The notes under the pieces are model-generated. The model was not told the origin of the DNA and searched no databases. It worked only from the letters and a program-made list of their open reading frames with translations. Positions 3,391 through 39,676 of a DNA stretch of 64,000 nucleotides are shown here, one piece after another. The DNA is from a virus, in the IMG/VR virus record IMGVR_UViG_3300021375_000007, positions 89,458 through 153,457 of that record; one strand, 5' to 3'. Numbering within the stretch: the stretch's first letter is position 1; each line of letters starts with the position of its first letter. Made by a program: the position numbers and the translations under genes.

Positions 3391-4371
3391 TTAGTAACTA
3401 GATACGCTTTTTGTTTTGGTCGGTACTACTGGGTTAACTTCTTTTTCTTCAATTACATTTTCTTCAATGAGAGGCGCCTCCCCATTGATATCTTCGACCA
3501 TGCTATTTAAGACCTGATCTAAAGCATCATCCTCATCGAATTCTGTCGGCGTAATTTTTTCTTCTAACATATCTTCTTTTTTAGTGTTATAAAATATAGT
3601 ATTAGCAGCAATTACTAATGCCACTGCTAATGGATCAAATACTAGCATTAATGCAATTATAAACCAATTCACTACCTGGTCTATTGTTTTATCTGTTAAT
3701 TTAGCAATATACTTTAATGGACCGATTTCAGCTGCTATATCAGAATCGGTTTCTATATCTAATTTAATTATATCAATTCGAGTTATAGAATCTACTAAGG
3801 CCTCTTCAGTCGATGATAATTTATCTCGCTGTGCCTTTGAATCATTTAATTGCCGCTCCAACACCTTACGCGTTGCACTTGATGTTGTTGTGATAATATT
3901 ACCATCTTCATCTTTATATTGTATTACGTTATTAGATAATCCTTTAGATAATTCCTTAATACTTTCTGCTAGTGAATTCCGTTCAGTTCGTATATCCTCT
4001 AATTGCACCGAAAATCTATCTCTTTTTAATTCATATACGGCTATATTTTTATCTATTACTTCAAGTTTATTAGAGGTCTCGGAATATGCACTACTTAAAT
4101 AACCATAGATACCACCTGAGGTAATAATCATCAATATACCAACGGCAATGGTTAAATATACCTTTAATAACGCATTTAACCTAGACCAATATTGATAAAG
4201 TAGTGATGCTATAACTAATTTTGCAATTTCTAAACTACCAGCCATAATTGCTACTTGAATAGAAGCGCCGGCAAACATTTTACTTAATCCTATAACTGAA
4301 TAAAAAGCTGCAGACAGTGATACTGATAGCGCGGATAATGCCACCAGATAAGGTAATACTTTACGTTCCAT
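3391..4371 (-). CDS. Membrane protein with central coiled coil
   Basis: 326 residues. Three hydrophobic segments fill roughly residues 7-95, followed by a long charged coiled coil (about 100-200), two more hydrophobic segments around residues 225-262, and an acidic, proline-containing tail. Such proteins recur in marine T4-type phages and may act at the host inner membrane; the role is unknown to me. Confidence 0.7.
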   Translation of the reverse strand: MERKVLPYLVALSALSVSLSAAFYSVIGLSKMFAGASIQVAIMAGSLEIAKLVIASLLYQYWSRLNALLKVYLTIAVGILMIITSGGIYGYLSSAYSETSNKLEVIDKNIAVYELKRDRFSVQLEDIRTERNSLAESIKELSKGLSNNVIQYKDEDGNIITTTSSATRKVLERQLNDSKAQRDKLSSTEEALVDSITRIDIIKLDIETDSDIAAEIGPLKYIAKLTDKTIDQVVNWFIIALMLVFDPLAVALVIAANTIFYNTKKEDMLEEKITPTEFDEDDALDQVLNSMVEDINGEAPLIEENVIEEKEVNPVVPTKTKSVSSY

Positions 4372-8503: not shown

Positions 8504-9556
8504 TTAAAACTCCTTTTCTAAAATTAACTCCCTATCGGGATTACTATTATAAATATCGCGATACCTAAGAATCGCTTGCTCTTTGGCCTTGGCCTCGACT
8601 ACAATATCGATATCTAATCCATATGGATCGATCTGGTCGATAATATAATCAGAATGGGCTTGCACTTTGGTCTTGTTAAAGCTAATTGCAATCTCATTGA
8701 AGGATGGCCATTTCTCTAATTCATCTAACGGAATATTGTGCTTAGCACATGCATCTTCTAACAAACGTCTATACTCATCACGCCTAGATTCAGAATAATG
8801 AGTACACTGACGAACATCAGCTGGCCAGGTCGTTGAAGCTAACTTAAGCGCTTGCTCTTCGCTAAGGTCACTCGAATGAAACTTATGATGGTGGTAATCG
8901 AACGTAATAGGAACCCCTAACTCGCTATAGATCAAATCATATAGCATCTGAGTAGAATACAAACTAGCCTTATCATCATTCTCCACGACTAATCGAGCTC
9001 GACATCGATCGGATAACCTAAGCCAATTCTTACGCCATCTAGCAGCTGCAATTTCAGGCTCACCATACGCGCCACCGATATGAATATTGATCTTGTTCTC
9101 AAAGGAAGGCTCATAGCCCATAAGATCCCAAGTCTCGGAATGACGCTCAAGACCTATAAGAGACTTAGCAACAACATCTTCTCGAGCTGAAGCAAGGCAA
9201 TGGTAAGGTCCAGGATGCGTAGTTAATCGATGACCATGCGCACGAGCATAATCGCCGGCCTCTCGGAGCACATCTCGAATCTCGTTATACTGAGGCAGGT
9301 CATGGAGCTCATACTGGTCATGCCAAGGAAAGAGCTCAGACCCTACACGGAACAGCTTAATATTATGCTCTTCGTTCCATTCTAAATATTCTAACAAATC
9401 AATAGCGTTAAGAAGAGCCAAGTCTCCTAAATAGCTAATACCTTTGGCTTGCCAGGTCGCCTTACGTGCGGTCCGGGAGGTAGTTACTCTATCTCGGCCG
9501 GAACCACGTTTCGGGTTAGTCAGAGCCATATTCATACATGCATATCCTAATCTCAT
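8504..9556 (-). CDS. uvdE: UV-damage endonuclease UvdE (UVDE family)
   Basis: 350 residues. The sequence follows UvdE/UvsE TIM-barrel nucleases closely: RLGYACMNM at the start, TSRTARKATW, YLGDLALLNAIDLLEYLEW, FRVGSELFPW, LTTHPGPYHCLASAREDVV, NKINIHIGGAYG, RLVVENDDK, PITFDYHHHKF and THYSESRRDEY. These supply the His/Glu/Asp ligands for the metal cluster. The enzyme nicks DNA 5' to pyrimidine dimers and other lesions, an alternative to photolyase or UvrABC. Its ATG is only 4 nt after a host-type promoter -7 box, so the message may be leaderless. Confidence 0.9.
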   Translation of the reverse strand: MRLGYACMNMALTNPKRGSGRDRVTTSRTARKATWQAKGISYLGDLALLNAIDLLEYLEWNEEHNIKLFRVGSELFPWHDQYELHDLPQYNEIRDVLREAGDYARAHGHRLTTHPGPYHCLASAREDVVAKSLIGLERHSETWDLMGYEPSFENKINIHIGGAYGEPEIAAARWRKNWLRLSDRCRARLVVENDDKASLYSTQMLYDLIYSELGVPITFDYHHHKFHSSDLSEEQALKLASTTWPADVRQCTHYSESRRDEYRRLLEDACAKHNIPLDELEKWPSFNEIAISFNKTKVQAHSDYIIDQIDPYGLDIDIVVEAKAKEQAILRYRDIYNSNPDRELILEKEF

Positions 9557-37486: not shown

Positions 37487-37849
37487 TTAGTCCTTTGGGT
37501 TATATTGTGTATACGTTAATAAAATTTCTTCGCCTTCCTTGATATCATTCAAAGTATGTAACTGCCATTCTACTGGGGTTACTGTTATGTCTTGAAGCAA
37601 TCTGCAGTTAGGTGTTTCATTATGATTTATGAATCCACCCAATGGCGTACGTACTATTTTATGACTACCACCGGACATATCAGGCACAGACTCGAAATCT
37701 AAATAATAATGCGTAACACCTAAACATACACCTTCTGATATATCTTGTGTAGCAAATACTCCTAATTCTCTTCTACCTGTTTTAGATGATAAGCTGGAAT
37801 CTTTAATAGTAAGGCTACTGGGTAATGGTCTGTAATGTTCTTTGCTCAT
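37487..37849 (-). CDS. SET-domain protein (putative lysine methyltransferase)
   Basis: 120 residues from the ATG at 37849; the longer frame would overlap the upstream gene. GRRELGVFATQDISEGVCLG is the N-terminal SET motif, GGFINHNETPNC the NHxxxPNC signature that binds SAM, and DIKEGEEILLTYTQY the closing motif with catalytic Tyr. Small SET proteins occur in T4-type marine phages; the target protein is unknown. Confidence 0.8.
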   Translation of the reverse strand: MSKEHYRPLPSSLTIKDSSLSSKTGRRELGVFATQDISEGVCLGVTHYYLDFESVPDMSGGSHKIVRTPLGGFINHNETPNCRLLQDITVTPVEWQLHTLNDIKEGEEILLTYTQYNPKD

Positions 37850-37850
37850 T

Positions 37851-38267
37851 TTATTTGTTTTTGGTACACCATTTAATATATGAAAGTAAACACGTATTAC
37901 CAAATTTGCGATACGCTTTTTTATCTAACTCTAATCCTAACTGCTCTGCCAATTTCTCACCTTCATCCCAGGCATTGAATTCTTCACGAACTGTATCAAC
38001 TCGGTAATTGTTATATCCGGATGCGTTCTCTGATACCAATGCGGCTGTTATGCCCGGATACCGGCACATAAAGGTAGCTGGATTAGATCGTATAATCATA
38101 TGGCCACATTCATGTAGTAATGTCCAATATAATTTCTTACCACGTGTTTGGTAATTGATATTGATACATTTTGAAAAATGATCGGCTTCATTGCGTCTAG
38201 AATTAAGATTTACCATCCATCCAGATTCATATATGTAATCGATTATTCTTGCGATTCGTTCTTTCAT
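37851..38267 (-). CDS. Zinc metallopeptidase-like protein (HECGH)
   Basis: 138 residues. LYWTLLHECGHMII contains HExxH, and REEFNAWDEGEKLAEQLG supplies a downstream Glu, as in ImmA/IrrE-type zincins. No HTH is present. It may cleave a host or phage regulator. The gene starts 14 nt after the tmRNA coding piece. Confidence 0.7.
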   Translation of the reverse strand: MKERIARIIDYIYESGWMVNLNSRRNEADHFSKCININYQTRGKKLYWTLLHECGHMIIRSNPATFMCRYPGITAALVSENASGYNNYRVDTVREEFNAWDEGEKLAEQLGLELDKKAYRKFGNTCLLSYIKWCTKNK

Positions 38268-38280
38268 AACTGTTGTTTAA

Positions 38281-38505
38281 TACCTCTTACCACCCGAGGC
38301 TTTTACGACATGGCCTCTTTTTACCGTTAGCTCAGGGTGCCTATTAGGCAGCCATTGCTAGTTCAACTTGTTCGCCAGTTGTGCGTATGATCTCCCAATG
38401 CTCCTTTCTTGCTGTCAAAACCAGGCACCCCCATATTATTAATACTCTAGTGGAGGTGGAGGGAATCGAACCCTCGTCCAAACAAGCGGCTGACATTAGT
38501 CAGAC
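38281..38505 (-). ncRNA. ssrA: Circularly permuted (two-piece) tmRNA
   Basis: Read on the gene strand, the 3' half comes first: hairpin CTGAC-TAAT-GTCAG, then GGAC, T-arm GAGGG TTCGATT CCCTC, acceptor strand CACCTCC and discriminator A (38451); CCA is not encoded. After an 18-nt spacer (38433-38450) comes the 5' half: GGGGGTG (38426-38432), pairing with CACCTCC and placing G-U at the third pair as in tmRNA/tRNA-Ala, then CCTGGTTTTGACAGC. The tag frame ends ...GEQ VELAMAA then TAA TAG (38344-38346) in a TGCC-TAATA-GGCA hairpin, followed by a CACCC/GGGTG, GAGGC/GCCTC stem. This order is that of two-piece tmRNAs. The tag start codon is not certain. Confidence 0.88.
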
Positions 38506-38511
38506 GATCAA

Positions 38512-38859
38512 TTATAAATATACTTCTCCACCGTTCTCATCATCCTCGAAGACTGATACATATTCACATTCAAACTTCTCAAGCAATTCCTTTGCAATCA
38601 TTTCACAGCTTTTGGCTCCAAAATAATGAGACCTGTAATCTGATCTATAATATCTCATATTCAGATAATCCATTACATCTCTTTTGAACATAATAAACTC
38701 AACATCTCTATCATCATGATTGACTTTCTTCTTAAGTGTAACATGAAACATATGACGATGAATATCAGATAGGAATCCAACTTCAGGAAATATCTTTTTA
38801 GCATCCGGCCAATTATGGAGGCCATCTATTGCTAACTTAACTATTACATTTGTCTGCAT
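38512..38859 (-). CDS. Conserved phage hypothetical protein
   Basis: 115 residues. The block GLHNWPDAKKIFPEVGFLSD then IHRHMFHVTLKKKV and FGAKSCEMIAKEL is shared by a phage/bacterial family without known function. His-rich positions might bind a metal. The stop codon lies at the tmRNA promoter. Confidence 0.65.
   Translation of the reverse strand: MQTNVIVKLAIDGLHNWPDAKKIFPEVGFLSDIHRHMFHVTLKKKVNHDDRDVEFIMFKRDVMDYLNMRYYRSDYRSHYFGAKSCEMIAKELLEKFECEYVSVFEDDENGGEVYL
38513..38521 (-). promoter_or_regulatory. Late-type motif before tmRNA
   Basis: ATATTTATA directly before the acceptor piece, inside the last codons of the upstream gene. It would start the precursor near 38505. Confidence 0.5.
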
Positions 38860-38918: not shown

Positions 38919-39431
38919 TTTCTTCAACTGTTTTTTTACTTTTTTCCAATACCGGTTCGTTTTGCGGTTTGCATATCCTTTTGGTCCGCCATTCCAATTT
39001 CTGGCTATCTTTTCCAATGTATCATTTGGATGATGGTACTGTCGCCATATATTAAACATCTGCAATGATTTATCACGAGACCACCGATCATCTAAATCAA
39101 AGAACAATCCATTATCTGTCATATTACATATTCGATTTACTTCATGAAGCATAATCTGTCTTATCTGAATACAACCAACTGCGTTTTCTTTTTTATTTAA
39201 GGCAGAATCATTGTTACTACTTTCAATCCATATTATTGCTGTAATGAGCTTATTAATACTATCTGGTACATACTTTCGCAGTTCTTCATTTTCCTGTTCT
39301 AAGACATCAATACGTTCATTTAAATGAATGTTCAGTACTTCAACTTGCTCAACCTTCAAGGCCAATCCAACATCCAATATCATTAAAGCAAGTATTAGAA
39401 ATCCTACTATTACGGTTTTTGAATTTATCAT
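38910..39431 (-). CDS. Membrane-anchored SLT-type muramidase (putative endolysin)
   Basis: 173 residues. N-terminal TM or signal-anchor helix (VIVGFLILALMILDVGLALK), a short coiled coil (LNERIDVLEQENEELRK), then a lytic-transglycosylase-like domain: AIIWIESSNNDSALNKKENA with the catalytic Glu in IESS, VGCIQIRQIMLHEV, and IARNWNGGPKGY. It would cut the glycan strand of peptidoglycan. The anchor suggests a SAR-type endolysin or entry enzyme. Confidence 0.7.
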   Translation of the reverse strand: MINSKTVIVGFLILALMILDVGLALKVEQVEVLNIHLNERIDVLEQENEELRKYVPDSINKLITAIIWIESSNNDSALNKKENAVGCIQIRQIMLHEVNRICNMTDNGLFFDLDDRWSRDKSLQMFNIWRQYHHPNDTLEKIARNWNGGPKGYANRKTNRYWKKVKKQLKKLG

Positions 39432-39676
39432 ATTTGTTTATCTAAAAGTTTAACAGTTAAGCCAGCCTTTGCTAAAGCTGCATATATACCGAATATCGTA
39501 GGCTCGAATCCAGACATTACTTGACATTTACCAGTTGCTTCTATAATCTGAATTATTTGTGCTGATACTATAGGATTCTTATTACATGCCGTACGCAATA
39601 TATGGTCTACGTATGTCACGGCATTATAATCATCATTGTATAAGTACAAATAAATACGCTTACGTCTTGCTGGCAT
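39428..39676 (-). CDS. clpS: ClpS-like adaptor
   Basis: 82 residues. LYLYNDDYNAVTYVDHILRT fits the ClpS start (NDD-N, then V..L), followed by ACNKNPIVSAQIIQIIEATG and KCQVMSG, and LAKAGLTVKLL at the end, close to ClpS of flavobacteria (GKC, then AGL). ClpS presents N-degron substrates to ClpA/ClpC. It lacks the long N-terminal extension of host ClpS. Lies about 0.9 kb from the tmRNA. A ClpS domain call is from pattern only. Confidence 0.7.
   Translation of the reverse strand: MPARRKRIYLYLYNDDYNAVTYVDHILRTACNKNPIVSAQIIQIIEATGKCQVMSGFEPTIFGIYAALAKAGLTVKLLDKQI

What the first reader, a model, noticed from the sequence alone, without database searches (positions are those of the whole stretch)
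38281..38521. Phage-encoded circularly permuted tmRNA
Seen: the tRNA-like 3' half with T-arm lies upstream of the GGGGGTG...GGTTTTGACAGC 5' half, separated by 18 nt; the halves pair over 7 bp with G-U at the third pair; the tag frame ends VELAMAA-stop inside a hairpin. Known: permuted two-piece tmRNAs occur in alphaproteobacteria, some cyanobacteria and some betaproteobacteria; phage ssrA genes I know of (mycobacteriophages) are one-piece. Bacteroidota hosts normally use one-piece tmRNA. A permuted phage copy, apparently under late-type control, is striking.
Basis: partly seen in the sequence, partly recalled or inferred. Interest (0 to 1): 0.88.

Follow-up and report, generated by a model that had tools for sequence, protein, structure and literature searches.

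The report
Phage-borne split tmRNA, Bacteroidota type
This virus of bacteria, probably one that infects Bacteroidota, carries its own gene for a two-piece, circularly permuted version of the RNA that rescues stalled ribosomes; such phage genes were already known elsewhere, but this one belongs to a large, compact, little-described group that resembles its hosts' ordinary one-piece RNA.

Summary
The feature is real. At least 87 contigs carry the same family (66 distinct sequences, none one-piece). In 61 aligned members the pairs joining the two pieces covary, G3-U70 never varies, and the tag frame changes mostly synonymously, so it is under selection as a working tmRNA. A phage late-type promoter (TATTTATA) sits just before the acceptor piece.

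Two-piece tmRNAs in phages were published in 2022, and deposited Bacteroidota phages carry permuted genes: Chryseobacterium phage MA9V-3, Maribacter phage Panino, crAss-like phages. I also found one in a prophage of a Bacteroidota chromosome that keeps its own one-piece tmRNA.

What looks new: the family has no room for pseudoknot 1 (9-14 nt linker), mostly lacks an encoded CCA, and has a Bacteroidota-type tRNA domain and Gly-initial tag. That suggests, without proving, a fourth origin of the permuted form. A ClpS-like gene lies 0.9 kb upstream, with the same order in three related contigs. Function is inferred; RNA processing and charging are untested.

The parts
38513..38520 (-). TATTTATA late-type phage promoter element overlapping the end of the upstream ORF
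   Evidence: In the 153-kb record 21 of 41 gene-strand copies are intergenic (6.8% of the DNA; P = 2e-14) against 0 of 5 on the other strand; one precedes the portal gene. TATTTAT sits 41-44 nt before GGAC in 75 of 87 family members.
38451..38510 (-). predicted acceptor (tRNA 3') piece up to discriminator A; nt 74-76 read CTA, not CCA
   Evidence: The 5' end is inferred from the promoter and the P2 helix.
38459..38475 (-). T stem-loop GAGGG-TTCGATT-CCCTC
   Evidence: 100% paired in 61 members, compensatory changes at 2 of 5 pairs.
38452..38458 (-). 3' strand of acceptor stem, CACCTCC
   Evidence: 100% paired with 38426-38432 in 61 members; pair 5 is G-C, A-U or C-G; G3-U70 invariant.
38433..38450 (-). 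18-nt intervening segment, expected to be removed
   Evidence: 16-22 nt in 78 of the 84 members measured, 68-90 nt in 6.
38279..38432 (-). predicted coding (mRNA) piece; the 3' end is approximate
38426..38432 (-). 5' strand of acceptor stem, GGGGGTG
38411..38422 (-). D-region GGTTTTGACAGC, with TTGAC as in many Bacteroidota one-piece tmRNAs
38506..38510 (-). TGATC, acceptor-piece side of the outer P2 helix
   Evidence: 97.4% paired with 38388-38392 in 61 members, double changes at 2 of 5 pairs.
38388..38392 (-). GATCA, coding-piece side of the outer P2 helix
38344..38376 (-). tag reading frame GEQVELAMAA-stop
   Evidence: ARAGORN; synonymous variation at Ala codons 7, 9 and 10, stop codon interchanged.
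38338..38350 (-). hairpin TGCC-TAATA-GGCA holding the stop codon
   Evidence: 95.8% paired, double changes at 2 of 4 pairs.
38296..38327 (-). single pseudoknot after the tag: GAGGC/GCCTC with ACGG/TCGT
   Evidence: 86% and 99% paired; stem 1 has double changes at 5 of 5 pairs.
39428..39676 (-). ClpS-like protease adaptor gene, possibly linked in function
   Evidence: Pfam ClpS 30.9 bits, cut-off 23; clpS, then the phrog_17812 gene, then tmRNA also in L097, L103, L203; low-confidence model matches ClpS structures best.
38512..38859 (-). phrog_17812 gene just upstream of the tmRNA
   Evidence: 67-69% identical homologues at the same place in L097, L103, L203.

Best explanation
It is a functional, compact two-piece tmRNA of a T4-like phage that probably infects Bacteroidota. 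A phage late-type promoter starts a transcript at or near the 5' end of the acceptor piece (inferred). Host RNase P and tRNase Z, with CCA addition, remove the 18-nt segment and leave a ~60-nt acceptor piece and a ~150-nt coding piece (inferred from known two-piece tmRNAs). The pieces join through the acceptor stem and three P2 helices (shown by covariation). Host AlaRS charges it through G3-U70, and host SmpB delivers it to ribosomes stalled on cut mRNA (inferred; no smpB was found in the phage record). The ribosome resumes at GGC, adds GEQVELAMAA and is recycled; host Clp proteases degrade the product, perhaps steered by the phage ClpS. Likely benefit: it keeps ribosomes available late in infection, alongside or in place of the host's one-piece tmRNA.
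For: Profile score and ARAGORN. 87 complete family copies, 66 distinct, none with a downstream T-arm. Covariation between and within the pieces in 61 sequences. Invariant G3-U70 with compensatory changes at acceptor pair 5. Synonymous tag variation and interchanged stop codons. Late-type promoter at a fixed distance. Host: capsid protein nearest Microcystis phage Mel-JY01 (57.7%) and Flavobacterium phage immuto (54.9%); A-rich, mostly SD-less starts; GroEL scores highest against all five Bacteroidota genomes tested, apart from one MAG contig; Bacteroidota-type TTGAC and Gly-initial tag.
Against: No RNA, charging or SmpB data. MFE z-score -0.23. No room for PK1 upstream of the tag. CCA is not encoded in most members, although the phage's two tRNAs do encode it. 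The host is inferred; the nearest capsid is from a phage recorded on Microcystis.
Confidence: 0.82

Rival explanations
1. It is a decoy or antagonist: it binds host SmpB, AlaRS or EF-Tu and blocks host trans-translation rather than carrying it out.
For: A tag-less tmRNA of mycobacteriophage DS6A inhibits the endogenous tmRNA in E. coli (PMC11915505). PK1 is absent here.
Against: The tag frame, stop codon and 3' pseudoknot are all kept under selection, which a decoy would not need.
Confidence: 0.09
2. It is a relic or attachment-site fragment left by integration into a host tmRNA gene.
For: tmRNA genes are common integration sites, and the tRNA-domain core is nearly identical to a host one-piece gene (35 of 36 positions).
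Against: A permuted gene with covarying pairs in 61 sequences is not a fragment, and 395 of 396 genomes of the phylum lack a match to the permuted model, so there is no such host gene to integrate into.
Confidence: 0.03
3. On origin: the gene was captured from a known permuted lineage (alpha, beta/gamma or cyano, perhaps via marine T4-like phages) and then adapted to Bacteroidota, rather than being a new permutation.
For: Cyanophage S-CAM1 and Stenotrophomonas phage Yut2 carry permuted genes with tRNA-domain cores 83% and 86% identical to the window's; permuted genes are frequent in marine phages (PMC9004378).
Against: Alpha cores are only 56% identical; the D-loop TTGAC, Gly resume codon and missing PK1 are not seen in the alpha or cyano examples. 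The 36-nt tree is unresolved.
Confidence: 0.5

Closest known systems
Permuted two-piece tmRNA (Rfam RF04321; RF01849 alpha, RF01850 beta, RF01851 cyano)
   Same: Gene order, acceptor stem with G3-U70, T-arm, D-region, P2 helix between pieces, tag frame, pseudoknot after the tag.
   Different: Linker to the tag is 9-14 nt with no PK1; Gly resume codon; TTGAC instead of TCGAC; CCA mostly not encoded; the beta model scores only 49.2 bits (cut-off 84).
Two-piece tmRNA of marine phages (Melnitz, pelagimyophages; PMC9004378)
   Same: Permuted ssrA on T4-like marine phages.
   Different: Those are described as belonging to alphaproteobacterial, gammaproteobacterial or cyanobacterial lineages, and Melnitz's is described with an early promoter; here the type is Bacteroidota-like with a late-type promoter.
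Permuted tmRNA of Chryseobacterium phage MA9V-3, Maribacter phage Panino, crAss-like phages cr114_1, cr125_1, cr10_1, cr50_1 and the G272 prophage
   Same: Permuted, Gly-initial tags; TTGAC in all but MA9V-3.
   Different: Other tag families (GNVIDINKYVAKLEVAA, GKVMNVSFAPTVRQFA, GNFYVTDYTRIAA and others) and longer intervening segments.
One-piece tmRNA of Bacteroidota
   Same: tRNA-domain core up to 97% identical, AACTGGCGAA resume context in L219, tags such as GENNYALAA and GNTQYAMAA.
   Different: Not permuted; about 350-400 nt, with further structured regions on both sides of the tag that the phage gene lacks.

Membership tests
tmRNA, permuted form (RF04321) | Score above the curated cut-off of the permuted model | tested here: met
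   70.3 bits, cut-off 47
tmRNA, permuted form (RF04321) | Acceptor half encoded upstream of coding half, halves paired by the acceptor stem | tested here: met
   100% paired in 61 members
tmRNA, permuted form (RF04321) | Alanine identity pair G3-U70 | tested here: met
   Invariant in 61 sequences
tmRNA, permuted form (RF04321) | Tag reading frame ending in a hydrophobic degron and stop codon | tested here: met
   GEQVELAMAA-stop, synonymous variation
tmRNA, permuted form (RF04321) | Two mature RNA pieces | not testable with these tools
   Needs RNA from infected cells
tmRNA, permuted form (RF04321) | Alanylation and work with SmpB | not testable with these tools
   No smpB found in the phage record, so it would have to use the host's
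tmRNA, permuted form (RF04321) | PK1 upstream of the tag (typical of two-piece tmRNA per PMC3985003; typical rather than defining) | tested here: not met
   9-14 nt unfoldable linker in 61 members; the model hairpin is deleted in the alignment
Betaproteobacterial two-piece lineage (RF01850) | Score above its cut-off | tested here: not met
   49.2 bits, cut-off 84
Alphaproteobacterial two-piece lineage | Ala (GCA/GCC) resume codon, encoded CCA, PK1, TCGAC D-region | tested here: not met
   Compared with L224 and L225 only
ClpS (PF02617), upstream gene | Score above Pfam cut-off and ClpS fold | tested here: met
   30.9 bits against 23; relatives 28.6-51.2; best PDB fold matches are ClpS, model confidence low
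Bacteroidota phage (host) | Direct host link | tested here: inconclusive
   Indirect evidence only; no isolate or CRISPR match

The most novel reading that the evidence does not exclude
Permuted tmRNA arose a fourth time, in phages of Bacteroidota, from their hosts' one-piece tmRNA, and gave a minimal form without PK1 that phages maintain although the hosts never adopted it; in this phage group it is linked to a phage ClpS adaptor that redirects tagged proteins.
Probability: 0.35. Interest if true: 0.75.

Novelty: new variant of a known kind. Interest (0 to 1): 0.58.

Why it matters
Three cellular lineages with permuted tmRNA were known. A viral lineage in a phylum whose cells keep the one-piece form would show that the permuted form can arise and persist in phages, and it offers a natural PK1-less tmRNA for testing what the ribosome needs to find the resume codon. 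A cultured phage with a permuted gene of the same phylum, Chryseobacterium phage MA9V-3, makes the claim testable now.

Tried and rejected
Origin in a known permuted lineage: a 36-nt tRNA-domain tree has low support and cannot decide. Genome relatives found through the 1011-aa protein and through capsid hits carry no permuted tmRNA above cut-off, so the gene is patchy. SmpB in the phage: none found. ClpS linkage: only in three other family contigs of those held, so not general. A sequence search of PDB with the ClpS protein found nothing. The genome contigs pattern scan gave mostly chance 17-mers; one real hit (L203) lies in an archaeal MAG, probably mis-binned. MFE z-score was uninformative. 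My first counts of the nucleotides after the discriminator A and of host D-loop motifs were wrong through pattern errors; replace them.

Full report
Observation. ARAGORN finds a permuted tmRNA at 38253-38540 on the minus strand with tag GEQVELAMAA, and cmscan finds RF04321 tmRNA_permuted at 38344-38510 with 70.3 bits (cut-off 47). The folding energy of the strand is not unusual (z -0.23), so the case rests on the profile score and on comparison.

The family. A pattern on the acceptor half and D-region found 14 viral contigs, 13 of which score as permuted tmRNA or overlap it. A pattern on the resume site and the first tag codons found 109 viral stretches. Including the window and one MAG contig (L203), 87 complete genes with tags G[EA]QVE[LMY]AMAA remain, 66 of them distinct, and none has a T-arm downstream as a one-piece gene would. 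Codons 1-5 were partly fixed by the search pattern, so their conservation is not evidence; codons 6-11 are outside it. There, the Ala codons vary synonymously and all three stop codons occur.

Structure. In 61 aligned members the helices that hold the two pieces together are paired in 100% (acceptor stem), 97% (outer P2), 92% (middle P2) and 98% (inner P2) of cells, all above shuffled and slid controls, with double changes in each (I moved one alignment gap by hand near the inner P2 helix before counting). The T stem, the stop-codon hairpin and one pseudoknot after the tag also covary. Acceptor pair 5 occurs as G-C, A-U or C-G, while G3-U70 never changes. Between P2 and the resume codon there are only 9-14 nt with no predicted fold, so PK1 is absent, whereas a review describes two-piece tmRNAs as typically having PK1 and PK2 (PMC3985003). 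Nucleotides 74-76 are CTA in 52 and CCA in only 10 of 84 members; the two tRNA genes of the window do encode CCA.

Expression. TATTTATA occurs 41 times on the gene strand of the 153-kb record and 5 times on the other. Twenty-one of the 41 are intergenic although only 6.8% of the DNA is (P = 2e-14), and one precedes the portal gene. I read it as this phage's late-type promoter. One copy lies at 38513-38520, directly before the acceptor piece, and TATTTAT sits 41-44 nt before GGAC in 75 of 87 members. The primary transcript would thus begin close to the mature 5' end. That is inference from sequence.

Phage and host. The record is an IMG/VR virus of 153,457 bases; the window is 89458-153457. It has T4-like capsid, portal, terminase and DNA polymerase genes. 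The capsid protein is nearest to Microcystis phage Mel-JY01 (57.7%) and Flavobacterium phage immuto (54.9%), then, among named isolates, Rhodothermus phage RM378. Start sites are A-rich with few Shine-Dalgarno motifs. Its GroEL scores higher against the five Bacteroidota genomes tried than against the other phyla, except for one contig of a Limnohabitans MAG that may be contamination. A Bacteroidota host is therefore probable, not shown.

Hosts and other phages. Forty of 41 sampled genomes of the phylum match the one-piece model. Only 1 of 396 matches the permuted model. That copy (tag GKVIQMNNAPVRLAA) lies on a 1.6-Mb contig beside phage DNA polymerase, rIIA/rIIB and integrase genes, that is, in a prophage, and the same genome has a normal one-piece gene. 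Permuted genes with Gly-initial tags also occur in Chryseobacterium phage MA9V-3, Maribacter phage Panino and four crAss-like phages; all six are annotated as tmRNA in their records. Cellulophaga phage Calle_1 has a one-piece gene. Published work already reports 53 two-piece structures in phages, mostly marine (PMC9004378). So phage-borne permuted tmRNA is not new; I found no paper, in the open library searched, that describes the Bacteroidota-phage group.

Origin. The window's tRNA-domain core differs at 1 of 36 positions from the one-piece gene of a Bacteroidota genome and is 56% identical to two alphaproteobacterial permuted genes. Twelve of 35 host one-piece genes have TTGAC in the D-region and all twelve have Gly-initial tags, as the phage family does; the alpha, beta, cyanophage and Stenotrophomonas-phage examples have TCGAC. 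This fits an independent permutation from a Bacteroidota tmRNA, but capture followed by adaptation to host SmpB cannot be excluded, and the tree is too short to decide.

Neighbours. A ClpS-like gene (39428-39676) lies 0.9 kb upstream on the same strand. The order clpS, phrog_17812 gene, tmRNA recurs in L097, L103 and L203. The AlphaFold model is of low confidence (pLDDT 63) but its best PDB matches are ClpS. ClpS in jumbo phages is known (PMC6102473, PMC7824862). A joint role with tagging is a hypothesis.

Verdict. A real, conserved, most likely functional two-piece tmRNA of a compact Bacteroidota-phage type: a new variant of a known kind.

Noticed in passing
L067:3674-3748 (-) within tmRNA 3480-3844; L229:1245-1317 (+) within tmRNA 1144-1586: A complete tRNA gene sits inside the intervening segment of a permuted tmRNA: tRNA-Ala(TGC) in a viral contig and tRNA-His(GTG) in crAss-like phage cr114_1. 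Cutting out the tRNA would itself help create the tmRNA ends.
   Followed up: partly
window 39428-39676 (-); L097, L103, L203: ClpS-like adaptor gene in conserved order with a phrog_17812 gene and the tmRNA.
   Followed up: partly
window record, e.g. 38513-38520 and 21 intergenic sites: TATTTATA appears to be the late-type promoter of this phage, the reverse complement of the T4 late element TATAAATA.
   Followed up: partly
intervening segments of L068, L070, L122, L123, L142: Repeated AT-rich units resembling TATATTCA-TTAGATATAAT enlarge the intervening segment to roughly 70 nt.
   Followed up: no
G272:C1:960001-1012000 (L213-L215): Prophage in a Bacteroidota chromosome carrying a permuted tmRNA beside tRNA-Met and tRNA-Ile, while the genome has its own one-piece tmRNA.
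   Followed up: partly
G000:C1:3369-4994 (L051): Phage-encoded GroEL, about 60% identical to Bacteroidota GroEL.
   Followed up: partly
window 37487-37903 and 37851-38267 (-): SET-domain-like protein and a protein with an HECGH motif, both just downstream of the tmRNA and possibly on the same transcript.
   Followed up: no
window 8504-9556 (-): UV-endonuclease UvdE homologue (Pfam 182 bits).
   Followed up: no
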